Shown piece after piece: positions 32,096-47,636 of a stretch of DNA of 64,000 bases; the first letter of the stretch is position 1, and each line of letters begins with the position of its first letter. The notes under the pieces were generated by a model. That model searched no databases. It was not told the DNA's origin and saw nothing but the letters and a program-made list of their open reading frames with translations. The stretch is from Hyphomicrobiales bacterium (GTDB lineage Bacteria > Pseudomonadota > Alphaproteobacteria > Rhizobiales > Rhizobiaceae), in assembly GCA_900473915.1 (NCBI GenBank), contig UCNG01000014.1, positions 156,745 to 220,744 on the forward strand. The letters are read 5' to 3'. Position numbers and translations under genes: made by a program.

Positions 32096-32108
32096 CAGGG
32101 GAGAAAAT

Positions 32109-33080
32109 ATGCTCGGGAGGTTTTTTCTGACACGGCCTGAGGCCGCTAAACGAACTGTTCAGGTAGCGTTTTTTGTTATCCTGACAGCGCTCTTCTGTTT
32201 CATGAATGTCCGGTTCTCGGGCATAACAAACTGGCTGGGGATCGACCCCAAAGTCGCGAAGGCGGGTTTCACCAAGGCGACGTTGCTGTCCTCCGTTCTG
32301 CTTAGCCTCCTGATCTTCGCCAATTGGAGTTTTTTGAGACTATTTCCACGTTGGGTACAGATTATAGCCATATGGCTGGAACTGTTCCTGCTGCTGATGG
32401 TCTTCTTCTATTCATTCAATCTCTCGTTTGAATTCATCGCCAGAAAGATCGGATTTCTCATCAGCCAGGGCGTCGTCACGACGCTTTATATTTCCACCGC
32501 TTCCATCTTCTTCGCAACCGTTCTGGCGCTGATCGGCGCTGTCGCCAAACTCTCCAAGAACGGTCTGGTCTACGGTCTGGCGACGTTTTACACCTCGCTC
32601 TTCCGCGGCCTGCCCTTGCTGATGCAGATTTACATTATTTACCTCGGCTTGCCGCAGGTGGGATATGTCATTGGGCCGATCCCCGCCGGTATTCTGGCGC
32701 TTTCGCTGTGTTACGGCGCTTATATGACGGAAATCTTTCGTGCGGGCATCGAAAGCATCCCGCGCGGACAGCAGGAAGGTGCCGCCGCTCTGGGGCTGGG
32801 GCCATCGCAAACGATGTGGCTGGTCATTCTTCCGCAGGCGATGCGCATCATCATTCCGCCAACGGGCAACCAGTTCATCGCGATGCTCAAAGACTCGTCG
32901 CTGGTCTCTGTCATCGGTGTATGGGAGCTTATGTATCTTGCCCGCACACAGGGCCAAACCGAGTTCCGGCATATCGAGATGCTCATCACGGCATCAATGA
33001 TCTACTGGGCACTGTCCGTCGTGCTGGAATATGGCCAGGCGAAGCTCGAAGCTCGCTTCAAACGTTCCCTCGTGCGTTGA
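32109..33080 (+). CDS. Amino-acid ABC transporter permease (HisM type) with N-terminal extension
   Basis: 323 residues. The first 110 residues hold about three extra membrane helices. The HisM/GlnP-type permease domain follows (about 125-315), with GLPLLMQIYIIYLGLP and the EAA-loop IESIPRGQQEGAAALGLGPSQTMWLVILPQAMR that docks the ATPase. Start ATG 32109 has an AGGGGAGAA site. No ATP-binding subunit accompanies this set, so it must borrow one, the nearest being the polar amino acid ATPase at 37540-38313. Confidence 0.9.
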   Translation: MLGRFFLTRPEAAKRTVQVAFFVILTALFCFMNVRFSGITNWLGIDPKVAKAGFTKATLLSSVLLSLLIFANWSFLRLFPRWVQIIAIWLELFLLLMVFFYSFNLSFEFIARKIGFLISQGVVTTLYISTASIFFATVLALIGAVAKLSKNGLVYGLATFYTSLFRGLPLLMQIYIIYLGLPQVGYVIGPIPAGILALSLCYGAYMTEIFRAGIESIPRGQQEGAAALGLGPSQTMWLVILPQAMRIIIPPTGNQFIAMLKDSSLVSVIGVWELMYLARTQGQTEFRHIEMLITASMIYWALSVVLEYGQAKLEARFKRSLVR

Positions 33081-33172: not shown

Positions 33173-33958
33173 TTATCGCCGCCACCTGAGCGACATGCAT
33201 GACAGACCTGCATCGATCCGTCCGATTTCGCCTGTCTTGAGGGCAACAACCCTATATCCCTCTTTATCAAGCTTATCGATCGTGCGGGGATAGTCCGCGC
33301 CGACGAAAACGACATCGTTGACCCGAAGCGCATTGGCGGCTGCCTCTTCACCCTCCGGCGTCACAATTTCACGCATGCCTCGAAAGAAGCCGGAGCCCGC
33401 CAGCCTGTGCGTCGCAAGCACCGTCTCCTCGTCCAGCAGCGAACAGTCGGTCTTGAAGTGCAGTACACCCTTCGGCGTCTCGACAATCTCGGCGGCACGT
33501 CCGAGCGCCGTCAGTGCAGCCCGAAGCCCTTCGGCGCCACTCTTGTCGGTACGCGCCGACAGGCCGATCATCACCACCTTGGGCGTCACCAGCACATCAC
33601 CGCCATCGGCGAAACCGGGTGAAGGGAGCGACACGACATTCTCAAAGAGCGAACGCAGAACCGGTTCTATTTCAGCCGTCTCACCCATGCGCGATGGTGC
33701 ACCAGGACGCAGCAGAACTGCGCCTTCGTGGAACACCAGCGCCGGATCTTCTACAAATATCGAATCCGGAAAATCCTCCATCGGCGGCAGAACCGTCACC
33801 TCGACACCAGCGTTTCGCAACGCCTGCACATAGGCTTCGTGTTCTTCCCTGACACCTTCGTAGGTCGGATTGCCCCTGTCATCGGCGCGCAAACCATTGA
33901 CGACGGATCGTCCCGGCGTGCGAACAATGGCTGCATTGAATTGATAAACGGCGGTCAT
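33173..33958 (-). CDS. ddaH: Dimethylarginine dimethylaminohydrolase homologue (guanidino-modifying enzyme fold)
   Basis: 261 residues of the pentein superfamily, DDAH branch. Known DDAH hydrolyses N-omega-methylated arginines to citrulline and a methylamine. Visible blocks are MEDFPDSIFVEDPALVF near 58-75, FADGGDVLV, the catalytic histidine in GVLHFKTDCSLL, and the nucleophile C254 in GLSCMSLRW, eight residues from the end. It is the last gene of the leftward transporter operon, five bases after the M20 gene. Substrate is inferred: a methylarginine, or another guanidino compound made by the divergent operon. Confidence 0.87.
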   Translation of the reverse strand: MTAVYQFNAAIVRTPGRSVVNGLRADDRGNPTYEGVREEHEAYVQALRNAGVEVTVLPPMEDFPDSIFVEDPALVFHEGAVLLRPGAPSRMGETAEIEPVLRSLFENVVSLPSPGFADGGDVLVTPKVVMIGLSARTDKSGAEGLRAALTALGRAAEIVETPKGVLHFKTDCSLLDEETVLATHRLAGSGFFRGMREIVTPEGEEAAANALRVNDVVFVGADYPRTIDKLDKEGYRVVALKTGEIGRIDAGLSCMSLRWRR

Positions 33959-33963
33959 GGAAA

Positions 33964-35136
33964 TCACTCGGGTTTGAGATAGGCTTCAGCAAGCTCGGTC
34001 CAGAAGGCCGCGCCGATGGGAATCAAATCATCGTTGAAATCGTAAGACGGATGGTGGAGCTGGAAATCGTTTTCTCCCTTGCCGCCCCCCACAAAGAAGT
34101 AAGTTCCGGGTCGCTCACGGAGCATATAGGCAAAATCCTCGCTGCCCATGAAAGGTCGTTCCAGATCGATCACGTTCGTTGCGCCAAACGAGTTCACCGC
34201 CAGTGAGCGCGCGAAATCAGTTTCCGCGGTATGGTTGATCGTCGCATCATAACTGCGCAGATACTCCACTTCAGCAGTTAGTCCGAAGCTCTCTGCCTGA
34301 TGCGCTGCAACACGTTTGATGCGTTGCTCGATCTGATCGCGAATGGTGGGCGAAAAAGTGCGAATGCCGACCACGATTTCTGCCGTCGATGGAATGATAT
34401 TGCTGGCCGAACCACCATGGAATGCGGCAACCGTCACAACCGCCGGATCGAGCGCTGGCACGTTACGGGACTTGATGGTCTGCAGGGCCATCACAATCGA
34501 AGCGCCCGCGGTTATCGGATCAGCAGTTTTTTCCGGTTCCGAGCCGTGACCGCCGTAGCCGTTCACCCTGATAAATGCTTCATCGACCGCCGCCATGATC
34601 GGCCCATCGCGGAAGGCAAACTTGCCGAGGGGAATGCCGGGATCGTTGTGAAGGGCAAAAACAGCATCACAAGGAAAACGGTCGAACAATCCTTCGTCTA
34701 TCATGATCTTGGCACCGCCGAAATTCTCTTCCGCCGGCTGGAAAATCAGATGAATGGTTCCGTCGAAATTGCGCCGTTCAGCCAGAGCCTTGGCAGCACC
34801 GAGCAACATCGTCGTATGGCCATCATGTCCACAGGCATGCATCAGCCCCGGGGACTTGCTGGAATAGGGCAGATTTGTCTGCTCATGAATGGGAAGCGCG
34901 TCGATATCGGCACGAATGCCGACCGACTTCCGGCCCGATCCATTCGTCAAAGTCCCAATGACCCCGGTTTTTGCAAGTCCTCGCGTGACCTTGTATCCCA
35001 GGGCCTCGAGCTGCCGCGCAATGATCTCGGAAGTCCGTTTCTCCTCGAGCCCCAGTTCAGGGTGAGCATGAAGGTCATGCCGCAACGCTGTCAGCTCTGG
35101 AAGATTGTTGCGAATAGCAGTCGAAAAATCGCGCAT
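33964..35136 (-). CDS. M20 family amidohydrolase (hippurate hydrolase/N-acyl amino acid type)
   Basis: 390 residues. The metal-site blocks are ALRHDLHAHPELGLEE near 18-33, GIRADIDALPI near 73-83, MHACGHDGHTTMLLG near 99-113 and FQPAEENFGGAK near 133-144, typical of peptidase M20D enzymes that release amino acids from N-acyl or amide conjugates. Start and preceding permease stop are adjacent (no gap), so it is fully within the transporter operon. It could deacylate an imported N-acyl-arginine-type compound; that is inference. Confidence 0.9.
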   Translation of the reverse strand: MRDFSTAIRNNLPELTALRHDLHAHPELGLEEKRTSEIIARQLEALGYKVTRGLAKTGVIGTLTNGSGRKSVGIRADIDALPIHEQTNLPYSSKSPGLMHACGHDGHTTMLLGAAKALAERRNFDGTIHLIFQPAEENFGGAKIMIDEGLFDRFPCDAVFALHNDPGIPLGKFAFRDGPIMAAVDEAFIRVNGYGGHGSEPEKTADPITAGASIVMALQTIKSRNVPALDPAVVTVAAFHGGSASNIIPSTAEIVVGIRTFSPTIRDQIEQRIKRVAAHQAESFGLTAEVEYLRSYDATINHTAETDFARSLAVNSFGATNVIDLERPFMGSEDFAYMLRERPGTYFFVGGGKGENDFQLHHPSYDFNDDLIPIGAAFWTELAEAYLKPE

Positions 35137-35946
35137 TCAAGCACCTCTTGTCGGAATTCGGTTCTCAAGACGCCGGAAGACCAGGACCAGGCCTGCGGTC
35201 AATATCATGTAGATCAAGGCCAGCAGCAGAAGCGGCTCATAAGTGAGATAGGTTTCCTGGCGCACCCGCGAAACGACGCCGTAGACATCGACGACGGTTA
35301 TGGTTGCCACCAGCGGCGTCGATTTCAATTGAAGGACCGTTTCGCCGTTCAGGGTCGGCAGAGCGCGATGGATCGCGCGCGGCAGCCAGATACGGCGAAA
35401 CACTTTCCAGGGTGACATGCCGAAGGCACGACCGGCCTGCAGCTCGCCGGATGGCACGCCAGCAAACGCACCGCGCATGACCTCCCCCTCATAGGCCGCG
35501 AAAGAGATCGTCAGCGCGGCAAGTCCATATGGCCATGCCTCGCGCAGATAAGGCCAGATAAACGAGCCGCGAATGCCGGGAATGGAGGGAAACAGCGACC
35601 CAAGGCCGTAATAGAGCAGCCACAGCTGCAACAGCAACGGCGTCCCCCGGATGACGGTGCAGAACGCCTTCGCTGGCCAGCTCAACCACCATGGGCCAGT
35701 CACCTGAAGCAATCCGAGGGGAAGAGCCAGCATAAACCCCAGAATTGCAGACCCGAAAAGCATGAACAGAGTTACCACGATGCCGGAACCCAGACGAGGC
35801 AGGTATTGCGGCAGCCAGTCCCAGCGGCCCAGCACCACCGCCGAGGCAAACAGCGCTATCGCGATGACAATCAGCACAAGGCGGTGCGGTTCGAGCCAGT
35901 TTCTGACGGACATCCGGTTTTCCAATACTGCTGAAGATGTGCTCAT
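35137..35946 (-). CDS. Polar amino acid ABC permease (ArtM/HisM type)
   Basis: 269 residues from ATG 35946; a longer in-frame start at 35991 would overlap the upstream permease. Four to five membrane helices, with the family block VIRGTPLLLQLWLLYYGLG and the ATPase-docking loop AFAGVPSGELQAGRAFGMSPWKVFRRIWLPRAI. One base separates it from the partner permease, so the two are coupled halves of one channel. Confidence 0.92.
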   Translation of the reverse strand: MSTSSAVLENRMSVRNWLEPHRLVLIVIAIALFASAVVLGRWDWLPQYLPRLGSGIVVTLFMLFGSAILGFMLALPLGLLQVTGPWWLSWPAKAFCTVIRGTPLLLQLWLLYYGLGSLFPSIPGIRGSFIWPYLREAWPYGLAALTISFAAYEGEVMRGAFAGVPSGELQAGRAFGMSPWKVFRRIWLPRAIHRALPTLNGETVLQLKSTPLVATITVVDVYGVVSRVRQETYLTYEPLLLLALIYMILTAGLVLVFRRLENRIPTRGA

Positions 35947-35947
35947 C

Positions 35948-36670
35948 TCAGTCAATCCGTGCGAAGCCACGGCGCGCGCGCCGCTCGACAATGCCGATGA
36001 AGACGTTCGAAATCAGGGTAAGCCCGAGGTACAGCACGCCAGCGGCCATGAAAAACAGCAGATAATGCTTGGTCGTGCCCGCTGCCTGTCTCGTCACCAG
36101 GGTCAGTTCGCTGAAGCCGACAACCGCCAGAAGGGCTGTATCCTTGGTTGAGATAAGCCACAGATTGGCAAGGCCAGGTGTGGCGAAGGGCAGCATGGCC
36201 GGTATCGTGATGCGTCTGAGCATCTTGGACGGGGGCATGCCGAATGCGCGCGCTGCCTCGATCTGGCCGGGCGCGATCGCTTTGATCGCACCGCGCAGGA
36301 CTTCCGTCGAATATGCGCCCTGCACGACACCGATGACGAAAATACCGGCCGCAAGTCCGCTGATATCGACCTTGCCTTGCCCAAGCAGAGCAAGCAACTG
36401 GTTCAACAGGTCGGTGCCTGCGTAGTACAGGATAAGGATCAGCACCAGCTCCGGCACGGCGCGGACCACTGTCGTATACACTTCCAGAAGGTCGCGAATG
36501 ATCGGACCGCCATAGAGCTTGCCCAGCGCACCGAACATGCCGATCAGCAGACCGAGCGAATAACCGCCAACGGCAATTTGCAGCGTGTGCCAGAAACCCT
36601 GCAGAAGCACCCCTCCCCATCCCGGCGGATTGAGAGCAAGCAGGCTCCAGTTGATCAGTGGTGCATCCAT
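35948..36670 (-). CDS. Polar amino acid ABC permease (ArtQ/HisQ type)
   Basis: 240 residues with about five membrane segments. Typical blocks are FWHTLQIAVGGYSLGLLIG near 26-44, VVRAVPELVLILILYY, and the docking loop IKAIAPGQIEAARAFGMPPSKMLRRITIPAML. Cotranscribed with the binding protein upstream and the second permease downstream. Ligand type by family is a basic or polar amino acid (His/Arg/opine). Confidence 0.92.
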   Translation of the reverse strand: MDAPLINWSLLALNPPGWGGVLLQGFWHTLQIAVGGYSLGLLIGMFGALGKLYGGPIIRDLLEVYTTVVRAVPELVLILILYYAGTDLLNQLLALLGQGKVDISGLAAGIFVIGVVQGAYSTEVLRGAIKAIAPGQIEAARAFGMPPSKMLRRITIPAMLPFATPGLANLWLISTKDTALLAVVGFSELTLVTRQAAGTTKHYLLFFMAAGVLYLGLTLISNVFIGIVERRARRGFARID

Positions 36671-36700
36671 GGGCAGTTCCGTTCATGCTGAAATCGGGGA

Positions 36701-36727
36701 GGCCAGCCGAAGAGAAACCGGCTGGCC
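36701..36727 (-). other. Intercistronic hairpin after the binding-protein gene
   Basis: Perfect 9-bp arms 36701-36709 and 36719-36727 in the 64-bp gap behind the binding-protein gene of the leftward operon. No T-run. It probably lets the binding protein be made in excess over the permeases. Confidence 0.55.
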
Positions 36728-36734
36728 AGGAAAC

Positions 36735-37517
36735 TCACTGGCCGTAAATGTCGAAATCGAAATATTTTTTGGTGAAGGTATCGTAGGTTCCATTCGCGCG
36801 GATGGCCTTGATCGCGGCGTTCAGCTTGTCCTTGAGTTCCGTATCGCCCTTGCGCAATCCGATGCCCACACCCGGCCCCAGAACCTCGACATCCTGAGCG
36901 ACGGTTCCTTTTTCCTCGCAGCATGCCTTGCCGTTATCCGTCGCAAGGAACGTCCGCAGAGCCAGGGAATCCGCCTGCACGGCATCGATGCGCCCGGCGG
37001 TGAGGTCGTTGTTGGCTTCGTCCTGCGTCTGATATACCTTGATCGTGGCACCGGCGGGCGCGAAATGCTTCACCGCATAGGCCTGATGGATGGTAGAAAC
37101 CTGCACGCCAATCATCTTGTCCTTCAGCCCCTCCGGCGTCGCGTCGAATTTGAGATCCTTGGTGCCGATGACGATCGTCGGTGTATTATAATATTTGTCA
37201 GAGAAATCGATGGTCTTGAGACGTTCAGGCGTCATCGACATTGAGCCGACGATCATGTCGATCTTGCCGGTGGTGAGTGCGGGGATGATGCCATCCCAGG
37301 CGACCGGCGTTATCACGCAATCAAGCTTGGCCTCTTTGCAGACTGCATCCGCAAAATCGATTTCCCAGCCGTGCCATTTTCCCGTGGCGTCAGGTTCCGT
37401 GAAAGGGGGATAAGGTTCTGCTGCGATACCGAGCTTCACCTGTTCGGCACTTGCCGCCCCCACTCCCGCAACGGCAAATGTTACACCCACGCACAGACTA
37501 GCCAAAAGACACTTCAT
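36735..37517 (-). CDS. Polar amino acid ABC substrate-binding protein (LAO/ArgT-like)
   Basis: 260 residues, SBP family 3. The signal peptide is MKCLLASLCVGVTFAVAGVGAASA. Mature blocks are IAAEPYPPFTEPDATGKWHGWEIDFADAVC near 32-61 and MIVGSMSMTPERLKTIDFSDKYYNTP, close to lysine/arginine/ornithine-, octopine- and histidine-binding proteins. Start ATG 37517 has a GGGAGGAG site. A CC pair (KACCEEKG) near residue 199 is unusual. Ligand by context is arginine or a guanidino derivative. Confidence 0.92.
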   Translation of the reverse strand: MKCLLASLCVGVTFAVAGVGAASAEQVKLGIAAEPYPPFTEPDATGKWHGWEIDFADAVCKEAKLDCVITPVAWDGIIPALTTGKIDMIVGSMSMTPERLKTIDFSDKYYNTPTIVIGTKDLKFDATPEGLKDKMIGVQVSTIHQAYAVKHFAPAGATIKVYQTQDEANNDLTAGRIDAVQADSLALRTFLATDNGKACCEEKGTVAQDVEVLGPGVGIGLRKGDTELKDKLNAAIKAIRANGTYDTFTKKYFDFDIYGQ

Positions 37518-37539
37518 TGGTACTCCTCCCATTCCCATT

Positions 37540-38313
37540 TCAGTGTGTTGAACTGATAAACTTCTTCAATCGCTCGGATTTGGGCGCCCCGAAGACCTCT
37601 TCGGGAGGTCCCTCTTCCTCAATCCTGCCATTGTGCAGAAAAACGATATGATTGGCGACCTTGCGCGCAAACTTCATCTCGTGCGTAACCAGGATCATCG
37701 TGCGTTTTTCCTTGGCCAGATCACCGATAACAGTGAGTACCTCGCCGACCAGTTCAGGGTCCAGCGCAGATGTCGGCTCGTCGAAAAGCATCACCAATGG
37801 CTCTATCGCCAGCGCCCGCGCAATCGCGGCACGCTGCTGCTGGCCACCGGACATGAAAGCGGGATAGACGTCTCGCTTCTCGTAAAGCCCGACGCGCCTT
37901 AGAAGCGCTTCGGCCCGCTCTGTCGCTTCGGCCTTGGGCACACCCAGCACATGCACAGGCGCTTCGATCACATTCTCCAGGACGGTCATGTGCTGCCAGA
38001 GATTGAAGCTCTGGAAGACCATTCCGAGCCGCGTGCGAATACGCTCGATCTGCCTTCGGTCCGCGGGTATCTGGCCGCCATTGCCGGTGTTTCGCATGGC
38101 GATGGTTTCACCGTGGATGGTGACCGCCCCCGATGTTGGCAGTTCCAGCATGTTGATGCAGCGAAGAAATGTCGATTTACCGGAGCCTGATCCGCCAATA
38201 ATGGCGATGACATCGCCCTCGCGCGCCCTGAGTGAAACGCCTTTAAGCACCTCGAGATCACCGAAACGCTTGTGAAGGTCGACGACGGAGATCGCCTCTT
38301 CGCCTTGACTCAT
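37540..38313 (-). CDS. Polar amino acid ABC ATP-binding protein (HisP/ArtP type)
   Basis: 257 residues. Walker A GGSGSGKST near 39-47, Q-loop VFQSFNLW, signature FMSGGQQQRAAIARAL, Walker B VMLFDEPTSALDP, H-loop VTHEMKFA. The insert MRNTGNGGQIPADRRQIERIRTRLG before the Q-loop is the HisP/OccP subgroup feature that tracks with basic amino acid and opine uptake. First gene of the leftward operon, facing the TetR gene across a palindromic operator. Confidence 0.94.
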   Translation of the reverse strand: MSQGEEAISVVDLHKRFGDLEVLKGVSLRAREGDVIAIIGGSGSGKSTFLRCINMLELPTSGAVTIHGETIAMRNTGNGGQIPADRRQIERIRTRLGMVFQSFNLWQHMTVLENVIEAPVHVLGVPKAEATERAEALLRRVGLYEKRDVYPAFMSGGQQQRAAIARALAIEPLVMLFDEPTSALDPELVGEVLTVIGDLAKEKRTMILVTHEMKFARKVANHIVFLHNGRIEEEGPPEEVFGAPKSERLKKFISSTH

Positions 38314-38441
38314 GCGGCACAAACCTCCCTTGGCCCGACACCCTTACGGTTTGTCACAAGCCACCTGGATATTGCTTTATTATCAGCCACTTCGGAGTTC
38401 TTTTGACTTCTCGACAAGCGGCCAACCGTTCCCTTGACGTT

Positions 38442-38480
38442 GACTATACACTTGAATAAGTATTGCGCAAGTGCATAGTC
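38442..38480. promoter_or_regulatory. Palindromic operator between the divergent transporter and aru-like operons
   Basis: Arms GACTATACACTTG (38442-38454) and CAAGTGCATAGTC (38468-38480) are complementary at 12 of 13 positions around a 13-base spacer. A possible -35 TTGACG at 38434-38439 with a weak -10 TAAGTA at 38457-38462 places the plus-strand promoter inside the dyad. The TetR-type regulator gene starts 20 bases downstream, so autoregulation and control of the leftward operon are both likely. Confidence 0.7.
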
Positions 38481-38500
38481 AGACATCGAGGGAGGAGAGG

Positions 38501-39145
38501 ATGACCGCATCGTTTCGACGTGCGCCGGACTTCGATCGTCGCACGGACATGATAGAGGCTACGCTCGACTGCATTGCCGATCTCGGAATACAGGCGACAA
38601 CGGTTCGTGCCGTTGCGGCGCGTGCTGGCGTCAGCAATGGCCTGATCCGGCATCATTTCGCATCGAAGGCCAATCTCATCGCCGCCGCCTACCAGCGCAT
38701 GATCGAAATGATGACCCTGCCCGCGCTGAGCGTTCTGGAATCGGATGGCGGCACGCCCCACGACCGGCTGACGCGGTTCATCGCAGCCAGCCTCGGCGGA
38801 GCTGTGGCCGATCCGCGGATGCTCTCGCTGTGGGCGACTTTCGTCAGCCAGGTTCATCTTGATCCGAATCTGGAGCACGAACATCGCGAAGGCTATCTCG
38901 CTTTCCGGCGCGCGACCGAGACCTTGATTGCCGAGGTGCTATCGGCAGAAGGCCGGGAACCGGCCCCGCAATCGCGCAGAAACCTCGCTATCGCAGTCAA
39001 CGCCCTGATTGACGGCCTTTGGATCGAAGGCTGTCTCAGCGCGGCTGAAATCGACGAAACCACGCAAATTGGCATCGGACTAAGCTCAATCGGCGCTCTT
39101 CTCGGCATCGAGCTTCCCGCTGCGCCACCACTTCCGAGAAATTGA
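38501..39145 (+). CDS. TetR/BetI-like transcriptional regulator
   Basis: 214 residues. The helix-turn-helix spans about 15-60 (MIEATLDCIADLGIQATTVRAVAARAGVSNGLIRHHFASKANLIAAAYQ), very like BetI. The C-terminal half is a ligand pocket with LIDGLWIEGCL near 173-183, also BetI-like. Start ATG 38501 has a GGAGGAGAGG site. It is one base from the transaminase gene and so leads the rightward operon. By position it should repress both divergent operons through the adjacent palindrome; the inducer would be a cationic pathway intermediate. Confidence 0.92.
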   Translation: MTASFRRAPDFDRRTDMIEATLDCIADLGIQATTVRAVAARAGVSNGLIRHHFASKANLIAAAYQRMIEMMTLPALSVLESDGGTPHDRLTRFIAASLGGAVADPRMLSLWATFVSQVHLDPNLEHEHREGYLAFRRATETLIAEVLSAEGREPAPQSRRNLAIAVNALIDGLWIEGCLSAAEIDETTQIGIGLSSIGALLGIELPAAPPLPRN

Positions 39146-39146
39146 C

Positions 39147-40343
39147 ATGCATTACGCTTCCATCACCGATAGACTCTCAGGATTGGGTTCGGACAAATGG
39201 CGGGTCCATGCACGAGGCAGGGAACTGCGCGCGCTTGGCCATCCCGTCATAGAATTTACGATCGGCGAACCCGACGTTGCCCCGGATTCCTCGCTGCTCG
39301 AAGCATGCAATAACGCCATGCGCGCCGGACGCACCCGCTATTCCAACGGTCGCGGCGAACCGGCGGTGCTGGCGGCGCTGGCGGCAAAATATTCAAAGCG
39401 CACCGGCCGTGCCATCACGACCAATAATGTCCTCTATTTTCCTGGAACCCAAACAGCGCTTTATGCCGTTTTGACAGGATTGGTCGAGAGTGGCGACAAG
39501 GTTCTCGTCCCCGATCCCTATTACGCAACCTATGAAGGCGTGGTACGGGCGCCCGGAGCCGATATCGTCCCGGTGCCACTGCGGGCCGAAGATGGCTTTC
39601 ATCTTCGAGCAGAAATACTGGAAGCGGCGATCACGCCCGGCTGCCGGGTATTGCTTCTCAACAACCCGCACAATCCGACCGGAGCGGTTCTCACAAAACC
39701 CGAAATTGCTGCGATCAGCGAAGTCTGCCGCAAGCACGATCTCTGGATCGTTTGCGATGAGGTCTATGAAGAGCTTACTTTCGGCGCCGCATTTGCGTCG
39801 CCGCTCGATCTTCCGGAAATGGGGGACCGCACCATCGTGGTCTCCTCCATCTCGAAGTCACACGCAGCCCCCGGCTTTCGTGCAGGCTGGGCTGTGGGTT
39901 CGGAGGAGTTTTGCCAGAGATTGCTGCCTTTCTCCGAATCCATGCTCTTCGGTGGACAGCCTTTCATCGCCGACATGGCAGCCTATGCGCTGACACATGA
40001 TCTGCCGACAGCCTCAATCATGCGCGCGCAGTACAAGGCGCGGTCCGAGCTGATTGTAGAGCGTTTGCAAGGCGTTGCGGGTATCAAGCCCCTGATGCCG
40101 GAAGCGGGCATGTTCGTGCTGCTGGATATTGGCGGCACTGGCCTCAATGGTGAGGAATTCGCCAGCCGGCTGCTTGAAGAACACTACGTCTCGATGATGC
40201 CCGGCACGTCTTTCGGCCAGGTCGCGAAGAATCTGGTCCGCATGAGCGTCACCGTTCCTGAAGACAGCATAATCGAGGCTTGTGACCGCATTGCCCGGTT
40301 TGCCCGCAGCCTGAACTACAGAGCGGAAAGTCTGGTTTCATGA
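39147..40343 (+). CDS. Class I/II PLP aminotransferase, AruH-like (arginine:pyruvate transaminase)
   Basis: 398 residues, fold type I. Visible are NPHNPTGAVLT near 174-184, CDEVYEELTF near 203-212 and the PLP lysine K237 in SSISKSHAAPGFRAGW. It stands immediately before a gene resembling AruI (overlap of four bases), the pairing of the Pseudomonas aeruginosa arginine transaminase pathway, where AruH converts L-arginine and pyruvate to 2-ketoarginine and alanine. The name rests on that context plus general similarity; a methylarginine substrate is also possible. Confidence 0.85.
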   Translation: MHYASITDRLSGLGSDKWRVHARGRELRALGHPVIEFTIGEPDVAPDSSLLEACNNAMRAGRTRYSNGRGEPAVLAALAAKYSKRTGRAITTNNVLYFPGTQTALYAVLTGLVESGDKVLVPDPYYATYEGVVRAPGADIVPVPLRAEDGFHLRAEILEAAITPGCRVLLLNNPHNPTGAVLTKPEIAAISEVCRKHDLWIVCDEVYEELTFGAAFASPLDLPEMGDRTIVVSSISKSHAAPGFRAGWAVGSEEFCQRLLPFSESMLFGGQPFIADMAAYALTHDLPTASIMRAQYKARSELIVERLQGVAGIKPLMPEAGMFVLLDIGGTGLNGEEFASRLLEEHYVSMMPGTSFGQVAKNLVRMSVTVPEDSIIEACDRIARFARSLNYRAESLVS

Positions 40344-41989
40344 GCAGCAAAATAACGGTCGGGCAAGCGCTGATCCGCCTTCTGGAAGCATACGATGTCG
40401 ATACAGTATTTGGCATTCCGGGCGTGCACACAGCCGAACTTTATCGTAGCCTTGCCGGATCGAGCATCCGGCATGTTACCCCGCGCGACGAACAGGATGC
40501 GGGCTTCATGGCAGATGGCTATGCGCGGGTTTCGGGCAAGCCGGGTATCTGCCTGCTGATTACGGGGCCGGGGCTTACCAATGCGATAACCCCGATGGCC
40601 CAGGCGCGAGCCGATTCCATACCGATGCTCGTCATCTCAGGCGTCAACGCGCGCCACACGCTTGGACAATATAAGGGGCACCTGCACGAGCTTCCCGACC
40701 AGTCTGCGACCATGCGAACAATCGCCCTGTCGTCAGAACGACTGGAACAGCCCGGCGATCTTGCAGAACTGGTTGGCCGTGCCTTCGCCCGGATGAAATC
40801 CGGACGTCCGGGCCCTGTCCATATTGAAATCCCGACGGACCTTATGGAAGCCCCGTTTGAAGGAAACTTGCGCAAGTCCCCGGCAGTCGCGAACGCTACG
40901 GCTGTGGATTCCAATGTCGGGAAAATCAAAGCCGCTGCAACACTTTGCGCCGAAGCCCGCCGTCCTTTGATCCTCGCAGGCGGAGGCGCCAACCGGGCGG
41001 GTGATGCCGTTTCCGTCCTTTCGCAGATGCTTGACGCCCCGGTCGTGACCACAACGAACGCCCGTGGTTTGCTTGGCCGTCATCCGCTCGCGGTGCAGGC
41101 AAGCCCCAGCCTGCCGCCTATCCGCCAGCTGATCGCCGATGCCGATCTCGTCATTGCGATAGGAACCCAGTTCGGTCCGACCGATTACGACATGTATGTA
41201 GACGGAGGTTTCGAGCCTCCTGCCGACATGATCCGCATCGACATCGACCCGGATGCGGAGGCAACCAGCGCCCCGGCTGGCCTGATGATCGTGGGCGATG
41301 CCGCCCCAATAACGGAAGATCTCATTTCTGTTCTGCAGCTTCTTCCTCAGGCATCACGTGAGGACGGAAAGGAGCGCGCAACGGCGGCTAAGGCTGCGGC
41401 ATACGACTTCCTTTCACCCAAGATGCAGGCTTTGACCGAAGTTCTGGACACCATTCGGAATGCCCTGCCCGGCAGTATCATAGTCGGAGATTCCACGCAG
41501 CTCGCCTATGCTGGCAACCTTTTCTTCGAAGCCGATAGCGCACGAAGCTGGTTCAATGCTTCGACGGGGTACGGCGCGCTCGGATTTGGTCCCCCGGCCG
41601 CAGTGGGCGCCAGTCTTGCGCAGGCCGACACACCGGTGGTCTGCCTGGTGGGAGACGGCGGTTTCCAGTTCTGTCTCGGCACTCTCGGCACTGCCACAGA
41701 CGAGAAAGCGCCGGTGATTTTCGTCGTCTGGAACAATCATGGTTATCAGGAAATCGAAGATTACATGCTTTCTCGGGATATCGAGCCCGTGGGCGTTCGC
41801 CCGACACCTCCCGATTTTCTCAAGCTCGCGCAGGCCTATGGCATACCGGGTGAACATATCCGCCTGACTAATCAAGACAATCAGGATGCGCTTCATCCAG
41901 GCGCACTCGACCTTGCGCAACTCGTCGGGGCGCTTCACCGCGCCCAGGCTGTCGAGGGGCCCGCACTTATAGAAATAACGACGCCATAG
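40340..41989 (+). CDS. aruI: ThDP-dependent decarboxylase, AruI-like (5-guanidino-2-oxopentanoate decarboxylase)
   Basis: 549 residues of the acetolactate-synthase fold. The N-terminal block FGIPGVHTAELYR and HVTPRDEQDAGFMADGYARV match AruI closely; the ThDP-activating glutamate is E51. GQYKGHLHELPDQ is also AruI-like. The C-terminal ThDP/Mg motif is VGDGGFQFCLGTLGTATDEKAPVIFVVWNN near 436-465. AruI decarboxylates 2-ketoarginine to 4-guanidinobutyraldehyde. No aldehyde dehydrogenase gene lies nearby, so the next step is encoded elsewhere. Confidence 0.87.
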   Translation: MSSKITVGQALIRLLEAYDVDTVFGIPGVHTAELYRSLAGSSIRHVTPRDEQDAGFMADGYARVSGKPGICLLITGPGLTNAITPMAQARADSIPMLVISGVNARHTLGQYKGHLHELPDQSATMRTIALSSERLEQPGDLAELVGRAFARMKSGRPGPVHIEIPTDLMEAPFEGNLRKSPAVANATAVDSNVGKIKAAATLCAEARRPLILAGGGANRAGDAVSVLSQMLDAPVVTTTNARGLLGRHPLAVQASPSLPPIRQLIADADLVIAIGTQFGPTDYDMYVDGGFEPPADMIRIDIDPDAEATSAPAGLMIVGDAAPITEDLISVLQLLPQASREDGKERATAAKAAAYDFLSPKMQALTEVLDTIRNALPGSIIVGDSTQLAYAGNLFFEADSARSWFNASTGYGALGFGPPAAVGASLAQADTPVVCLVGDGGFQFCLGTLGTATDEKAPVIFVVWNNHGYQEIEDYMLSRDIEPVGVRPTPPDFLKLAQAYGIPGEHIRLTNQDNQDALHPGALDLAQLVGALHRAQAVEGPALIEITTP

Positions 41990-42026
41990 GCCGGGACGGT
42001 CTGGCAAAGCGACTGGGAGGAACGCT

Positions 42027-43187
42027 ATGCATTTCGGACTGACTGAAGAACAGGAAATGATCGTCTCGACAGTTCGGAGCTTTGTCGAGAACGAGATTTA
42101 TCCGCATGAAACGACCGTCGAGCGGCTTGGTTACGTGCCGGTGGAAATCGGCGACGAAATCAAGCGGAAGACCATCGAACTTGATTTCTATGCCAGCAAT
42201 TTCCCGGAATCGGCGGGTGGCCCCGGACTTTCCCATCTCGAGTTCGCGCTGGTGGAACGCGAGCTTGGGCGCGGGTCGATGGCGCTCACCCATTTTTTCG
42301 GACGCCCGCAAAATATCCTGATGGCCTGCAAGGGTGAGCAGATCGAGCGCTACCTCCTGCCAGCGGTGCGCGGCGAAAGGATGGATGCACTTGCCATGAC
42401 CGAGCCCGACGCCGGCTCCGACATTCGCGGTATGAAAGCCAGTGCGCGTCGCGACGGTGGCGATTGGGTGCTGAACGGCACCAAGCACTTCATTTCCGGC
42501 GCCGAGCACGCCGACTTCGTCATTGTCTTCATGGCGACAGGCGAGGAACAGTCCTCCGCCGGAACGAAGAAGAAAATCACGACCTTTCTGGTGGATCGTG
42601 GAACACCGGGCTTCACCATCCGCGAGGGTTACAAATCCGTCAGCCATCGCGGCTACAAGAACATGATCCTTGAATTCGACGACTGCCGTCTTCCCGATGC
42701 GCAGGTTCTCGGAGAGGTCGATGGCGGCTTTGCGGTCATGAATGAGTGGCTTTACGCGACCCGCATAACAGTTGCGACGATGGCGGTGGGGCGCGCGCGC
42801 CGCGTGTTCGACTTGATGGTCGACTACGCTGCCCAGCGCAAGCAATTTGGCCAGCCTATCGGCCGCTTTCAGGGCGTCGGCTTCCAGCTTGCCGATTCCG
42901 TCACCGAAATCGACGCAGCCGACTGGCTGACGCTGGCAGCGGCCTGGCGTCTCGATCAGGGATTGCCGGCAAACCGCGAGATCGCCTCGGCGAAAGTCTA
43001 CGCCTCCGAAATGCTGGCTCGCGTCACTGATCGGGCTATCCAGGTGCATGGAGGCATGGGCCTGATGGACGACCTCCCGCTGGAACGCTTCTGGCGTGAT
43101 GCCCGTGTCGAGCGGATATGGGACGGCACAAGCGAGATCCAGCGCCATATCATCGCCCGCGACCTCCTTCGCCCGCTCGGAGCCTGA
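42027..43187 (+). CDS. Acyl-CoA dehydrogenase
   Basis: 386 residues, standard ACAD length and three-domain layout: N-terminal helical part, middle domain with AMTEPDAGSDIRGMKASARRDGGDWVLNGTKHFISGAEHAD (FAD contacts), C-terminal helices with QRKQFGQPIGRFQGVGF. At the usual catalytic-base position (YEGT in many short/medium-chain enzymes) it reads IWDGTSEIQ, so D366 replaces glutamate. In context it should introduce a 2,3-double bond into a guanidinobutyryl-CoA or similar cationic C4 thioester, as CaiA does with butyrobetainyl-CoA. Start ATG 42027 has a GGGAGGA site. Confidence 0.9.
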   Translation: MHFGLTEEQEMIVSTVRSFVENEIYPHETTVERLGYVPVEIGDEIKRKTIELDFYASNFPESAGGPGLSHLEFALVERELGRGSMALTHFFGRPQNILMACKGEQIERYLLPAVRGERMDALAMTEPDAGSDIRGMKASARRDGGDWVLNGTKHFISGAEHADFVIVFMATGEEQSSAGTKKKITTFLVDRGTPGFTIREGYKSVSHRGYKNMILEFDDCRLPDAQVLGEVDGGFAVMNEWLYATRITVATMAVGRARRVFDLMVDYAAQRKQFGQPIGRFQGVGFQLADSVTEIDAADWLTLAAAWRLDQGLPANREIASAKVYASEMLARVTDRAIQVHGGMGLMDDLPLERFWRDARVERIWDGTSEIQRHIIARDLLRPLGA

Positions 43188-43189
43188 TC

Positions 43190-45241
43190 GTGAGCAAAAA
43201 GAACCTGTCTCGTGTCTTGCGTCCCAGTTCCATCGCCATCTTTGGCGGAGGATGGTCTACGGCTGTCCTCAGGCAATGCCGTAAAATGGGCTTTGAGGGA
43301 GAACTCTGGCCTGTCCACCCCACCCGCGATACTATCGACGACATTCCCTGCTATCGATCTGTCGCCGACCTTCCCGGCGCACCGGATGTAAGCTTCATCG
43401 GCGTCAACCGCGACGGAACAATCGATATTGTTCGCCAGCTCTCGGCGCGCGGAAGTGGCGGCGCAGTGTGCTTTGCCTCTGGCTTCAACGAAGTATCCGA
43501 CGGCGCCGAACGCAATCAGGCCCTGCTGGCCTCAGCAGGCGAAATGCCGATCCTCGGCCCCAACTGCTACGGCTTCATCAACTACCTTGATGGAGCCCTG
43601 CTCTGGCCTGACCAGCATGGCGGCAAGAGGGTGGAAAGCGGCGCCGCCATCGTCGTTCAATCGTCCAACATAGCTATCAATCTTACGATGCAGCGCCGAG
43701 GTCTTCCCATTGCCTATGTGCTGACAGCCGGAAATCAGGCACAGACCGGTCTTTCCGAATTGGCGGAAGCCGCGCTCGAAGACCCGCGGGTTACTGTTCT
43801 CGGTTTGCATATAGAAGGCTTCGACAATATTTCACGGTTGGAACGTGTCTTTGCCAGAGCGCGTGAGTTGAAAAAGCCCGTTGTTGCCATCAAGGTCGGA
43901 ACTTCCGCCGCTGCACAGGCGATGACCCTTTCACACACGGCATCGCTTGCCGGAGCCGACACGCTTGCCGACGCTTTCTTTGCGCGGTGTGGCGTCGTCC
44001 GTGTTGGAACGCTCGACGAATTTATCGAAACGCTGAAGCTTCTGCATGTGCTTGGCCCCTCACCGGACAACAGTCTCGGCTCGATGAGCTGTTCCGGCGG
44101 CGAAGCCTCACTCGTCGGCGATCTCGCAAACGCCGCAGGTCTCGATCTCAGACCGCTGGCGCCGCACGAGGCAAACAGGCTTCGCGCCACCCTGCCCGAG
44201 ATGGTCACCATCTCGAACCCCCTCGACTATCACACCTTTACATGGGGAAACGGACCGTCGCTGACTGAGACCTATCGCGCCATGCTCGACGGCAATTTCG
44301 GCCTGACCATACTGGTGCTCGATTTTCCCCGTGGGGACCGTTGTATTGACAATGGTTGCGAAACATCGCTCGAAGCCGCGATAGCGGCGCACAAAGCTGG
44401 AGGCGGTCGCTTTGCGCTGGTTGCCAGTTTGCCGGAGAACATGACGGAAGCCCATGCCGAACGTCTGATAGCAGCAGGAATAGCCCCGATGATGGGGCTT
44501 GCAACTGCGCTTGCGGCAGCAGCCAATGCTGCCTGGATTGGCGAAATCTGGTCGAAACCGCAATCTCCAATGCTGGCCGACCAAGCGCCAGCGTCGCCAT
44601 CTGCAGCCACCGCAATGGACGAGTGGTCATCGAAATCCGCCTTGCGCGAAATCGGCCTGATAACCCCAACAGGCGGCGTAGTATCGACTCTCGACGATGC
44701 TGTCGCCCTTGCCGAAAAGCTGGGTTACCCTGTCGTTCTCAAGGGCGTTGGTGAGCACTTGCTCCACAAAACGGAAATGGCGGCGGTGTGCCTCAATTTG
44801 GCGAATGCCGAAGCAGTACGCGCTGCCGCTCTTTCGCTTACTGCTTTGAAATGCGATTTTCTGGTCGAGAAAATGGTTCAGGGCGGTGTAGCTGAACTGA
44901 TTATCGGCATCGCGCGCGACCCGCAATTCGGGCTTTATCTGACCATTGGCGCGGGCGGCGTGATGGTTGAGCTTTGGAACGATACACGTTCGCTGCTCTT
45001 ACCTGCGAGCCGCGATGAAATCCGCGAGGCGCTTCTTTCCCTGCGCTCCGCCCCCCTCCTGACCGGCTTTCGCGGCAGGCCAAAAGCCAATATCGAAGCC
45101 GCTGTCGAGGCCACATGGCAGATTGGCAACTATGCGCTCGAACAGGCAGGGAAACTTGAGGAGCTCGACATCAACCCACTCATCGTCACAGCGGATGATG
45201 CAATCGCCGTCGATGCCCTGATACGCAACAGGAGAGCTTGA
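43190..45241 (+). CDS. ADP-forming acyl-CoA synthetase, fused alpha-beta (ACD/acetyl-CoA ligase type)
   Basis: 683 residues from GTG 43190, two bases after the dehydrogenase stop, with GGAG upstream; a longer frame lies inside that gene. Order of domains: CoA-binding Rossmann (about 1-120, RPSSIAIFGGG), succinyl-CoA-synthetase-like ligase (about 140-450, with the phospho-histidine motif LSHTASLAGAD), ATP-grasp (about 470-683; YPVVLKGVGEHLLHKTE, DINPLIV). Makes an acyl-CoA from acid, CoA and ATP with ADP release. Here it plausibly activates 4-guanidinobutyrate; carnitine pathways use the unrelated CaiC for this step. Confidence 0.9.
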   Translation: MSKKNLSRVLRPSSIAIFGGGWSTAVLRQCRKMGFEGELWPVHPTRDTIDDIPCYRSVADLPGAPDVSFIGVNRDGTIDIVRQLSARGSGGAVCFASGFNEVSDGAERNQALLASAGEMPILGPNCYGFINYLDGALLWPDQHGGKRVESGAAIVVQSSNIAINLTMQRRGLPIAYVLTAGNQAQTGLSELAEAALEDPRVTVLGLHIEGFDNISRLERVFARARELKKPVVAIKVGTSAAAQAMTLSHTASLAGADTLADAFFARCGVVRVGTLDEFIETLKLLHVLGPSPDNSLGSMSCSGGEASLVGDLANAAGLDLRPLAPHEANRLRATLPEMVTISNPLDYHTFTWGNGPSLTETYRAMLDGNFGLTILVLDFPRGDRCIDNGCETSLEAAIAAHKAGGGRFALVASLPENMTEAHAERLIAAGIAPMMGLATALAAAANAAWIGEIWSKPQSPMLADQAPASPSAATAMDEWSSKSALREIGLITPTGGVVSTLDDAVALAEKLGYPVVLKGVGEHLLHKTEMAAVCLNLANAEAVRAAALSLTALKCDFLVEKMVQGGVAELIIGIARDPQFGLYLTIGAGGVMVELWNDTRSLLLPASRDEIREALLSLRSAPLLTGFRGRPKANIEAAVEATWQIGNYALEQAGKLEELDINPLIVTADDAIAVDALIRNRRA

Positions 45242-46029
45242 TGACTGACGAGGTGAAGGCCGTTCGCAACGGTCAGATATTGGAGATCACGCTCGACCGG
45301 CCAAAGGCCAATGCCATCGACCAGCCAACCAGCCGAAAGCTCGGCGATGTCTTCGCCATGTTTCGAGACGACCCGGATCTGCGCGTTGCTATTTTCACAG
45401 GCGGGGGAGAGAAGTTTTTTTCCGCCGGCTGGGATCTGAACGAAGCGGCTTCAACCGGCGGAGACGGGTATATCGCCGACTATGGTCAGGGTGGAATCTA
45501 TGGCTTTTCCGAATTGCCCGGATTGGAGAAGCCCGTCATCTGCGCGATCAACGGTTATGCCATCGGCGCGGGTTTCGAAATTCTCTTGACTGCCGACTTC
45601 GTCATTGCCGCCGACCACGCGCAATTCTGGCTGCCGGAAACTTCGCTCGGGGTTTTGCCGGATATCGGCTCATTCGTTCTGCCCAAGCTCCTGCCCAAGG
45701 TTATAGCGAACGAAGTTCTTTATGGAGGGCGGCGTTTCAGCGCGCAGGACTGCCTCCGCTGGGGTCTGGTCAATGACGTGGTGCCGCAGGCAGAGCTGAT
45801 GAGTGCTGCCCGTAGGCTCGCTGCCCGTATCCTGCGCTCCGCACCGCTTTCTGTTGCCGCAGCCAAACAGACAGCGCGTATGGCCGAACATATGAGCCTG
45901 ACCGAAAGCTACGCCGCCATGCGGGCTGGTAATTTCCCACTGTTCAAATCGCTGATCGAAAGCGAAGACGCCCTGGAAGGACCGCGCGCAGCGGTCGAAA
46001 AGCGCGATCCCGTATGGAAAGGCAGATGA
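45241..46029 (+). CDS. CaiD-like enoyl-CoA hydratase, first paralogue
   Basis: 262 residues, crotonase fold. N-terminus RNGQILEITLDRPKANAID and C-terminus EDALEGPRAAVEKRDPVWKGR are nearly those of E. coli CaiD (crotonobetainyl-CoA hydratase), including FFSAGWDLN, GAGFEILLTADF and RWGLVNDVV. CaiD hydrates a C4 enoyl-CoA with a quaternary ammonium at C4; a guanidinium cation is a close mimic. Start overlaps the ligase stop by one base (TGATG). A second paralogue follows after one base. Confidence 0.92.
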   Translation: MTDEVKAVRNGQILEITLDRPKANAIDQPTSRKLGDVFAMFRDDPDLRVAIFTGGGEKFFSAGWDLNEAASTGGDGYIADYGQGGIYGFSELPGLEKPVICAINGYAIGAGFEILLTADFVIAADHAQFWLPETSLGVLPDIGSFVLPKLLPKVIANEVLYGGRRFSAQDCLRWGLVNDVVPQAELMSAARRLAARILRSAPLSVAAAKQTARMAEHMSLTESYAAMRAGNFPLFKSLIESEDALEGPRAAVEKRDPVWKGR

Positions 46030-46030
46030 A

Positions 46031-46825
46031 ATGAACACATATGCCGAAGGCGCCATAACAACCCGCCGGGACGGTGCTATTCTGGAAGTTACGCTGGATC
46101 GGCCCAAGGCCAACGCCATCGATCTGCCGACATCGCGCGCGATGGGTCAAATTTTCGCAGCCTTCCGCGATGACCCGGAATTACGTGTCGCCATCCTCAA
46201 GACCGCTGGCGACCGTTTCTTTTCTGCCGGTTGGGATTTGAAAGCCGCGGCAGAAGGCGCGCCTATCGATGGCGACTACGGAATTGGCGGTTTCGGCGGT
46301 ATCCAGGAACTGCGAGACCTGAACAAACCCGTCATCGCATGTGTCAGCGGCATGGCCGCAGGCGGCGGCTTCGAACTGGCGCTGTCCTGTGACCTGATCT
46401 ATGCCTCGGACCATTCGACCTTTTCGCTTCCCGAAATTTGCTCCGGAACCATTGCAGACGCAGCAAGTATCCGGCTTCCGAAACGCATTCCATACCACAT
46501 AGCCATGGAACTTTTGCTGACCGGCCGGTGGGTCGACGCTCAAGAAGCTCATCGCTGGGGTTTCGTCAACGAAGTCCTGCCTCAGGAGAGGCTCGAGGAA
46601 CGCGTTTGGGAGATCGCCCGTCTGCTCGCCTCCGGTCCTCCACTCGTTTACGCCGCGATCAAGGAGACTGTTCGGCGCGCAGAAAGCGAGGACTTCCAAA
46701 CCATGATGAACCTCATTATGCGGCGCAAGTTGGCGACGGTCGACATTCTTTATGGATCGGAGGATAATTTGGAAGGCGCCAGAGCTTTCGCCGAAAAGCG
46801 CGATCCTGTCTGGAAGGGGAAATAG
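46031..46825 (+). CDS. CaiD-like enoyl-CoA hydratase, second paralogue
   Basis: 264 residues with the same CaiD marks (DGAILEVTLDRPKANAIDLPTS, RFFSAGWDLKAAAEGAP, GGGFELALSCDL, AFAEKRDPVWKGK). It keeps more of the CaiD N-terminal half (WDLKAAAEG) than the first copy, whereas the first keeps LGVLPD; this one has a changed CSGTIADAAS in the region of the second catalytic glutamate. The two may act in sequence or on different substrates, or as hydratase and epimerase. Last gene of the operon, followed by a terminator. Confidence 0.92.
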   Translation: MNTYAEGAITTRRDGAILEVTLDRPKANAIDLPTSRAMGQIFAAFRDDPELRVAILKTAGDRFFSAGWDLKAAAEGAPIDGDYGIGGFGGIQELRDLNKPVIACVSGMAAGGGFELALSCDLIYASDHSTFSLPEICSGTIADAASIRLPKRIPYHIAMELLLTGRWVDAQEAHRWGFVNEVLPQERLEERVWEIARLLASGPPLVYAAIKETVRRAESEDFQTMMNLIMRRKLATVDILYGSEDNLEGARAFAEKRDPVWKGK

Positions 46826-47520: not shown

Positions 47521-47636
47521 CGTTTTTCGCCCTCTACGTGAAACTTTTCATCTGTTAAATTAACGACAGGCCAGAGTTGGTGCGATTTACAGCCTTCTCC
47601 CGAGCAACGCTCGAAAAGCCCCCGCACTATCGTTCT

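What the first reader, a model, noticed from the sequence alone, without database searches (positions are those of the whole stretch)
33173..46825. Candidate undescribed regulon: arginine/guanidino compound uptake joined to a carnitine-like CoA pathway
Seen: two divergent operons meet at one palindrome beside a TetR/BetI-type gene. One encodes a basic-amino-acid ABC importer, an M20 amidohydrolase and a DDAH homologue. The other encodes AruH-like and AruI-like enzymes, an acyl-CoA dehydrogenase, an ADP-forming acyl-CoA ligase and two CaiD-like hydratases. Known: AruH and AruI turn L-arginine into 4-guanidinobutyraldehyde; in the described pathway the acid is then split to urea and 4-aminobutyrate. 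CaiA and CaiD act on butyrobetainyl- and crotonobetainyl-CoA. Inferred: 4-guanidinobutyrate (or its dimethyl form from methylarginine) is a cationic C4 acid like butyrobetaine, so it may be activated to the CoA ester, desaturated and hydrated here. DDAH would handle methylated substrates. No aldehyde dehydrogenase, ureohydrolase, CaiB or betaine transporter is present in the locus.
Basis: partly seen in the sequence, partly recalled or inferred. Interest (0 to 1): 0.8.

Follow-up and report, generated by a model that had tools for sequence, protein, structure and literature searches.

The report
Arginine locus with carnitine-type enzymes
A soil bacterium carries, behind one shared DNA switch, genes that import and shorten an arginine-like amino acid together with enzymes of the kind that otherwise turn butyrobetaine into carnitine, which suggests a breakdown route that has not been tested and can be tested directly.

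Summary
The genes and the palindrome are as described. The window comes from the Brucella/Ochrobactrum group. TetR-AruH-AruI facing an ABC importer operon is a recurrent alphaproteobacterial arginine locus, often without CoA genes. The ACD-ligase-CaiD genes belong to the gamma-butyrobetaine-to-carnitine module: in rhizobial plasmids they sit with carnitine dehydrogenase and BKACE. That module lies next to AruI in four arrangements: Brucella/Aurantimonas, Paracoccus methylarcula (with BKACE and carnitine dehydrogenase in the importer operon), Roseicyclus, and genome G044. Most surveyed genomes do not have them adjacent. So the link is real and recurrent. The proposed substrate, 4-guanidinobutyrate, is not established. 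For it: the window's ligase clade has lost a Trp kept in 15 of 15 related ligases and gained an Asp, near a cation-pi residue of DddX, and the two ureohydrolases of B. pseudintermedia are an arginase and an agmatinase. Against it: P. methylarcula has a guanidinobutyrase-like enzyme and keeps the Trp. Rivals are true butyrobetaine made from a trimethylated ornithine, and two nutrients in one regulon.

The parts
33173..33967 (-). DDAH-family hydrolase (distant from Pseudomonas DDAH; Cys and His of the active site aligned)
33964..35136 (-). M20 amidohydrolase (TIGR01891)
35137..35991 (-). ABC permease 1
35948..36670 (-). ABC permease 2
36735..37538 (-). Cationic alpha-amino-acid binding protein (HisJ/LAO kin)
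37540..38322 (-). ABC ATPase (HisP kin)
38441..38481 (.). Operator candidate: 14-nt arms, 13 of 14 matched, 13-nt spacer, between the two operons
38471..39145 (+). BetI-like TetR regulator (likelier start 38501)
39147..40343 (+). AruH-like class I/II aminotransferase
40340..41989 (+). AruI-type 2-ketoarginine decarboxylase (NF005712)
42027..43187 (+). Acyl-CoA dehydrogenase of the butyrobetaine module
43190..45241 (+). ADP-forming acyl-CoA ligase; Trp391 of its kin replaced by Cys, Asp388 gained
45238..46029 (+). CaiD1, hydratase found only in the Brucella/Aurantimonas aru loci among those examined
46031..46825 (+). CaiD2, hydratase close to the CaiD of rhizobial carnitine operons

Best explanation
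A TetR-controlled regulon for a cationic alpha-amino acid, most likely arginine and N-methylarginines. The ABC importer brings it in, M20 frees it from N-acyl forms and the DDAH-family enzyme hydrolyses part of the methylated pool. AruH and AruI convert it to a gamma-cationic butyraldehyde, and an unlinked aldehyde dehydrogenase makes the acid. The ligase, acyl-CoA dehydrogenase and CaiD copies then treat this acid as butyrobetaine is treated: CoA ester, 2-enoyl-CoA, 3-hydroxyacyl-CoA. The unlinked carnitine dehydrogenase/thioesterase (LcdH) and BKACE would finish by cutting it to a cationic acetate (guanidinoacetate or a methyl form) and acetoacetate. Shown: gene content, operator candidate, recurrent importer-aruHI pairing, recurrent joining to the carnitine module, LcdH and BKACE elsewhere in related genomes. 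Inferred: every substrate, every reaction and the regulation. In the window's clade the acid is most likely 4-guanidinobutyrate or a methyl derivative.
For: Module joined to AruI in four arrangements. Of 43 surveyed genomes holding both AruI and the ACD, 6 have them adjacent, 0.18 expected for random placement within 10 kb; leaving out the two centre genomes, 4 of 41, in two lineages, Poisson P about 0.013 for two or more. AruI of Brucella, Aurantimonas and Paracoccus is one clade (SH-aLRT 99), but their ligases are not: Paracoccus falls with rhodobacterial ligases, so the cassettes differ in origin. The SBP aligns along its length with LAO/HisJ, so the import substrate is probably an alpha-amino acid, not butyrobetaine. 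DDAH-family genes of two kinds recur in these loci. Ligase: Trp391 in 15 of 15 rows outside the window's clade (14 distinct), Cys or Ser in 8 of 8 inside it; Asp388 in 8 of 8 inside and 0 of 15 outside. By the alignment these lie at or within one residue of DddX Glu432 and Phe435; Phe435 is reported to form a cation-pi contact. The two ureohydrolases found in B. pseudintermedia pass the arginase and agmatinase cut-offs, the second scoring 312 bits to an agmatinase and 168 to guanidinobutyrase. CoA activation of 4-guanidinobutyrate is proposed in Streptomyces (passage of PMC10322714).
Against: P. methylarcula has a guanidinobutyrase-like protein (521 bits). Its ligase keeps Trp391, and its LcdH passes the carnitine 3-dehydrogenase cut-off (604.6 of 592). 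The ACD is 75-84% identical to four carnitine-operon ACDs, so it shows little sign of a new substrate. LcdH and BKACE are not in the window's locus. Antarcticirhabdus (CoA-linked, same ligase clade) has a ureohydrolase (L106) that groups with L112, which scores 275 bits to guanidinopropionase and 265 to guanidinobutyrase. The S. meliloti AruI-like enzyme was seven times more active on 5-amino-2-oxopentanoate than on 2-ketoarginine (PMC7268258). The residue argument rests on a sequence alignment with a gap at that place, and on a docked model plus mutants in the paper. The operator core gave no regulon proof.
Confidence: 0.4

Rival explanations
1. Two nutrients in one regulon. AruHI with the importer handles arginine; the CoA module handles gamma-butyrobetaine or crotonobetaine that enters by another transporter. 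They are co-regulated because both nutrients occur together.
For: ACD and CaiD2 are close to carnitine-operon enzymes (75-84% and 70-74%); in 37 of 43 surveyed genomes the two parts are not adjacent; LcdH and BKACE with a GlxA-type regulator occur in G001, G003, G004 and G007 and could finish carnitine breakdown.
Against: No quaternary-amine transporter was seen in the window's operons or matched in the P. methylarcula operon; the same link arose in four arrangements; Trp391 is lost in the window's ligase clade.
Confidence: 0.28
2. The acid is true gamma-butyrobetaine. AruH and AruI act on a delta-N-trimethylated ornithine (for example from trimethylornithine lipids), giving 4-trimethylaminobutyraldehyde, then butyrobetaine, carnitine and glycine betaine.
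For: In Roseicyclus AruI follows the GlxA-type regulator of a full carnitine operon, and in G044 AruH-AruI follow ACD-ACL-CaiD-BKACE-LcdH with a TetR gene between. The S. meliloti AruI-like enzyme prefers the ornithine keto acid (PMC7268258). Trimethylornithine lipids are reported from diverse environments (PMC7828035, listing and start of abstract only). M20 could free such an amino acid from N-acyl forms (inference).
Against: DDAH-family genes have no role in this reading; Trp391, a plausible trimethylammonium contact, is lost in the window's clade; no paper seen here treats free trimethylornithine as a nutrient (one search, 20 of 37 papers listed).
Confidence: 0.2
3. AruH and AruI act on another amino acid (ornithine, lysine or methylated lysine), so the CoA module sees a C4 or C5 acid other than guanidinobutyrate or butyrobetaine.
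For: S. meliloti AspC accepts arginine, agmatine, ornithine and putrescine (PMC7268258); the LAO-type SBP could fit several cationic amino acids.
Against: C5 acids would not fit a butyrobetaine-type C4 module, and 4-aminobutyrate has a simple route to succinate (general knowledge).
Confidence: 0.1

Closest known systems
Arginine transaminase pathway (AruH-AruI), P. aeruginosa; AspC-IlvB1 in S. meliloti (PMC7268258)
   Same: Aminotransferase followed by an AruI-type decarboxylase; NF005712 cut-off passed
   Different: TetR control, a CoA module in the same operon, no linked aldehyde dehydrogenase or guanidinobutyrase
Rhizobial gamma-butyrobetaine/L-carnitine operon (BKACE-LcdH-ACD-ACL-CaiD, L001 and L002)
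   Same: ACD 75%, ligase 54-55%, CaiD2 70-74% identical; same gene order ACD-ACL-CaiD
   Different: No BKACE, LcdH or GlxA at the window locus; second hydratase; ligase Trp391 replaced; arginine-type importer
E. coli cai operon
   Same: CaiD-like hydratases and an acyl-CoA dehydrogenase
   Different: ADP-forming instead of AMP-forming ligase; no CaiB, CaiC or CaiT (make-up of the cai operon recalled); CaiD scores under the cut-off
DddX, ADP-forming DMSP-CoA ligase/lyase (7cm9, PMC8163506)
   Same: Best solved relative of the ligase, 219-221 bits; activates a cationic carboxylic acid; phospho-His aligned
   Different: DddX also cleaves its product; its Trp391, Glu432 and Phe435 align with His, Asp and, at a gap, Cys/Glu of the window ligase (residues counted by eye)

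Membership tests
Arginine transaminase pathway | AruI-type 2-ketoarginine decarboxylase | tested here: met
   709.6 bits against cut-off 500
Arginine transaminase pathway | AruH arginine:pyruvate transaminase | tested here: inconclusive
   Class I/II aminotransferase; best NCBIfam model GntC at 251 of 415; no AruH model listed
Arginine transaminase pathway | Guanidinobutyrase that finishes the route | tested here: inconclusive
   None in the locus. B. pseudintermedia: two ureohydrolases, an arginase and an agmatinase; P. methylarcula has a guanidinobutyrase-like one. The window's own genome is not held
Gamma-butyrobetaine/carnitine module | ACD, ADP-forming ligase and CaiD in a row | tested here: met
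Gamma-butyrobetaine/carnitine module | Carnitine dehydrogenase/thioesterase and BKACE in the same operon | tested here: not met
   Absent at the window locus; elsewhere in G001, G003, G004, G007; in the operon in P. methylarcula
Gamma-butyrobetaine/carnitine module | Trp391 of the ligase (feature noted here, not a published definition) | tested here: not met
   Trp in 15 of 15 rows outside the window's clade, Cys/Ser in 8 of 8 inside it
Gamma-butyrobetaine/carnitine module | Acts on gamma-butyrobetaine | not testable with these tools
   Needs enzyme assay
E. coli cai operon | CaiD equivalog score | tested here: not met
   331 and 297 bits, cut-off 500
DDAH (dimethylargininase) | Equivalog score | tested here: not met
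   220 of 450 bits
DDAH (dimethylargininase) | Active-site Cys and His | tested here: met
   Aligned with 3rhy; which residues are catalytic is recalled; the recalled Glu114 aligns with Asp
BetI | Equivalog score | tested here: not met
   99 of 201 bits; C-terminal domain TetR_C_6 present

The most novel reading that the evidence does not exclude
An undescribed breakdown route in which 4-guanidinobutyrate, or N-methylated guanidinobutyrates from methylarginines, is activated to the CoA ester and beta-hydroxylated by a butyrobetaine-type module, giving 3-hydroxy-4-guanidinobutyrate ('guanidino-carnitine') and then guanidinoacetate by carnitine dehydrogenase and BKACE. It would let cells degrade methylated guanidino acids that Mn ureohydrolases may not split.
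Probability: 0.3. Interest if true: 0.75.

Novelty: new variant of a known kind. Interest (0 to 1): 0.5.

Why it matters
Loss of the S. meliloti arginine transaminase AspC halved nitrogenase activity in nodules, and 4-guanidinobutyrate is described there as a ureohydrolase substrate (PMC7268258). If a carnitine-type CoA route takes it, a known set of enzymes would have a second physiological substrate, methylarginine breakdown would gain a route, and genes annotated as CaiD or carnitine enzymes beside AruI would be misread. If butyrobetaine is the acid, a bacterial path from an amino acid to butyrobetaine would be opened. Either result needs only a few enzyme assays.

Tried and rejected
Rejected as an artefact: the palindrome exceeds all 1000 shuffles and keeps its arms in relatives. 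Rejected: a simple split of the native carnitine operon. In the trees the Brucella/Aurantimonas ACD goes with rhodobacterial ACDs, but their LcdH goes with Rhizobium LcdH; CaiD2 does not follow the ACD pattern clearly.

Tried: regulon search with the operator core TATGC-N4-GCATA in 9 genomes. Hits against the reversed-pattern control: 3/2, 5/4, 4/0, 6/0, 4/3, 1/1, 2/2, 2/0, 1/0. So 5 of 9 genomes are at or within one hit of the control; the extra sites of the others were not examined apart from the aru sites and two loci. This is no regulon proof. One extra site in G001 lies beside a TetR paralogue and an old-yellow-enzyme gene; the one in L085 lies among phage- or plasmid-like frames by eye. 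In the window the core with one mismatch hits only at 53592, as chance predicts, and not at the operator; the window has the 14-nt arms instead.

Tried: ureohydrolases as a discriminator. Result mixed: only arginase and agmatinase in G001, a guanidinobutyrase-like one in Paracoccus. One search read many rows on the wrong strand and was discarded; one search repeats it with fixed strands, but L107 still reads as a wrong frame and is not used. NCBIfam calls L103, L106 and L112 agmatinase by TIGR01230, so it does not separate guanidinobutyrase. gene calls are crude; (tblastn) replaces them. An early note placed the Antarcticirhabdus carnitine cluster near its aru locus; this was wrong (different contigs) and was corrected in the notebook. 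The first listing of ligase positions allowed one exception per position; one search recounts the ones used. No structure was predicted.

Not tested: orthology of the window genes with SMc02262/SMc02263; L119 and L120 were fetched and not analysed.
Full report
Observation. The thirteen genes and the palindrome are present as stated. AruI is the best-supported name (709.6 bits, cut-off 500). DDAH, BetI and both CaiD names are loose, all below the curated equivalog cut-offs. The palindrome at 38441-38481 has 13 of 14 matched arm positions; none of 1000 dinucleotide shuffles of 38323-38481 reached that. The arms are unchanged in L005 and L007.

Origin. No genome is held for the window. The closest AruI found is in Brucella pseudintermedia, 96%, so the window belongs to the Brucella/Ochrobactrum group.

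Neighbourhood. One scan of genome contigs with AruI gave 33 loci. Importer genes facing TetR-AruH-AruI without the ACD, ligase and CaiD genes were found in 8 of the 33 (L016, L018, L023, L025, L028, L030, L033, L034). The CoA cassette lies beside AruI in 11 of 33: six Brucella-group loci, two Aurantimonadaceae, P. methylarcula, two Roseicyclus. Several loci are short or end early, so absence there means little. A DDAH-family gene of the window's kind is in L005-L010, L014 and L032, and a second, distant dimethylargininase-like gene (L018: 87 of 340 bits) lies before TetR in several rhizobial loci.

Identity of the CoA module. In a Rhizobium and a Sinorhizobium plasmid the same three genes follow BKACE and a carnitine 3-dehydrogenase/thioesterase, with a GlxA-type regulator. 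The S. meliloti carnitine dehydrogenase is described elsewhere as acting on carnitine and on betainyl-CoA (passage in PMC12482172; the primary paper is not held). In P. methylarcula the importer operon reads ATPase-SBP-permeases-DDAH-ACD-ligase-CaiD-BKACE-LcdH. In B. pseudintermedia, B. daejeonensis, Ochrobactrum sp. RH2CCR150 and Antarcticirhabdus, GlxA-BKACE-LcdH stand elsewhere, and ACD, ligase and CaiD were not matched in the 18-19 kb fetched around them.

How common is the link. AruI matched 28 of 149 genomes of the Paracoccus family sample and 90 of 247 of the Brucella family sample. A carnitine-type ACD was found in 13 of 28 (739 bits or more; 14 further genomes had only weaker matches, 1 none) and in 30 of 80. 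It is adjacent to AruI in G005 and G044, and in G001, G004, G007 and G336, so 6 of 43. In G037 and G078 they are about 24 and 36 kb apart; in many others they lie on different contigs. The chance expectation within 10 kb is 0.18; without the two centre genomes it is 4 of 41 in two lineages, P about 0.013 for two or more. This is a rough model that ignores general clustering of catabolic genes and contig breaks.

Trees. All are quick searches with SH-aLRT support only. AruI and AruH of Brucella, Aurantimonas and Paracoccus form one clade (99; 99). Their ligases do not: the Brucella/Aurantimonas ligases are one clade (98), and Paracoccus lies among rhodobacterial ligases (group support 89). G044 has a distant AruH and AruI. 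So different AruHI lineages and different cassette lineages have come together.

Residues. Comparing 8 ligases of the window's clade with 15 others (14 distinct) gave 15 diagnostic positions under a rule that allows one exception. Recounted: Trp391 in 15 of 15 others, Cys in 6 and Ser in 2 of the 8; Asp388 in 8 of 8, in 0 of 15 others; Pro337 in 8 of 8, Gly in 14 of 15 others. Tyr348, Trp353 and the phospho-His (His250) are the same in all 23. Two far paralogues (L044, L045) have His at 391. Trp391 and Asp388 lie at or within one residue of DddX Phe435 and Glu432 in the alignment; Phe435 is reported from docking and mutation to contact the sulfonium (passages of PMC8163506). By the same rule the ACD shows 7 and CaiD2 11 diagnostic positions. 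Both Glu positions of the crotonase site are present in CaiD1 and CaiD2 (which residues are catalytic is recalled). The SBP aligns along its length with LAO and HisJ proteins, and Arg106 and Asp190 are invariant in 7 aru-locus SBPs; that the matching LAO residues hold the alpha-carboxylate and alpha-amino group is recalled.

Ureohydrolases. All 17 genomes searched have the family. The two in B. pseudintermedia are an arginase (377 of 228 bits) and an agmatinase (483 of 302 bits). P. methylarcula has a guanidinobutyrase-like copy. So need for a CoA route is plausible in the first and not in the second.

Mechanism. I commit to AruHI feeding the CoA module with a gamma-cationic butyrate, most likely guanidino in the window's clade (0.4). 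Rivals: two nutrients (0.28), true butyrobetaine (0.2), other amino acids (0.1). The recount did not change these odds.

Known work. PMC7268258 (parts 1 and 2 of 4 of the Results read, further passages found) characterises S. meliloti AspC and IlvB1; the terms acyl-CoA, enoyl-CoA and carnitin do not occur in its main text (supplements not seen), and it reports a ureohydrolase acting on 4-guanidinobutanoate. A search for 4-guanidinobutyryl-CoA found 4 papers; the listed titles are on Streptomyces vectors, Streptomyces polyketides, azalomycin and an algal-fungal association. Searches listed no paper whose title or abstract start describes a catabolic CoA route for guanidinobutyrate, but only 20 of 1,146, 2 of 2, 12 of 16 and 10 of 43 papers were listed. 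The library is open-licence only.

Noticed in passing
29236-33080: A second amino-acid operon upstream on the + strand: RidA-type protein, family 3 SBP, DAO-type FAD oxidoreductase (AmaA-like, 153 of 600 bits) and a permease; no ATPase seen beside it.
   Followed up: partly
57480-62533: A further DAO-type oxidoreductase (58224-59480) with ABC ATPase and family 3 SBP on the - strand, similar in make-up to the 29-33 kb operon.
   Followed up: no
46951-49986: Two DUF995 genes (46951-47520, 47637-48272), a GH26-like protein (48306-49247) and a third frame that looks DUF995-like by eye (49261-49986).
   Followed up: partly
L088 (G001 contig C39), about 1.4-11.3 kb: In B. pseudintermedia a BetI-like TetR paralogue shares the operator core TATGCAAGTGCATA and sits beside an old-yellow-enzyme/TMA-dehydrogenase-like gene, an AMP-forming CoA ligase, a crotonase and an ABC importer.
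   Followed up: partly
L012 16437-17150; L008, L011: A flavodoxin-like NAD(P)H oxidoreductase follows CaiD2 in Antarcticirhabdus, and a gene of the same cluster is in L011 (Aurantimonadaceae MAG) and L008 (B. daejeonensis), but not in the window.
   Followed up: no
42027-43187 (and all nine aligned ACDs): The expected catalytic Glu of acyl-CoA dehydrogenases (recalled, YEGT motif) reads Asp (WDGT) in aru-linked and carnitine-linked ACDs alike.
   Followed up: no
L029: B. cytisi copy of the locus shows several split frames and a run of N downstream.
   Followed up: no
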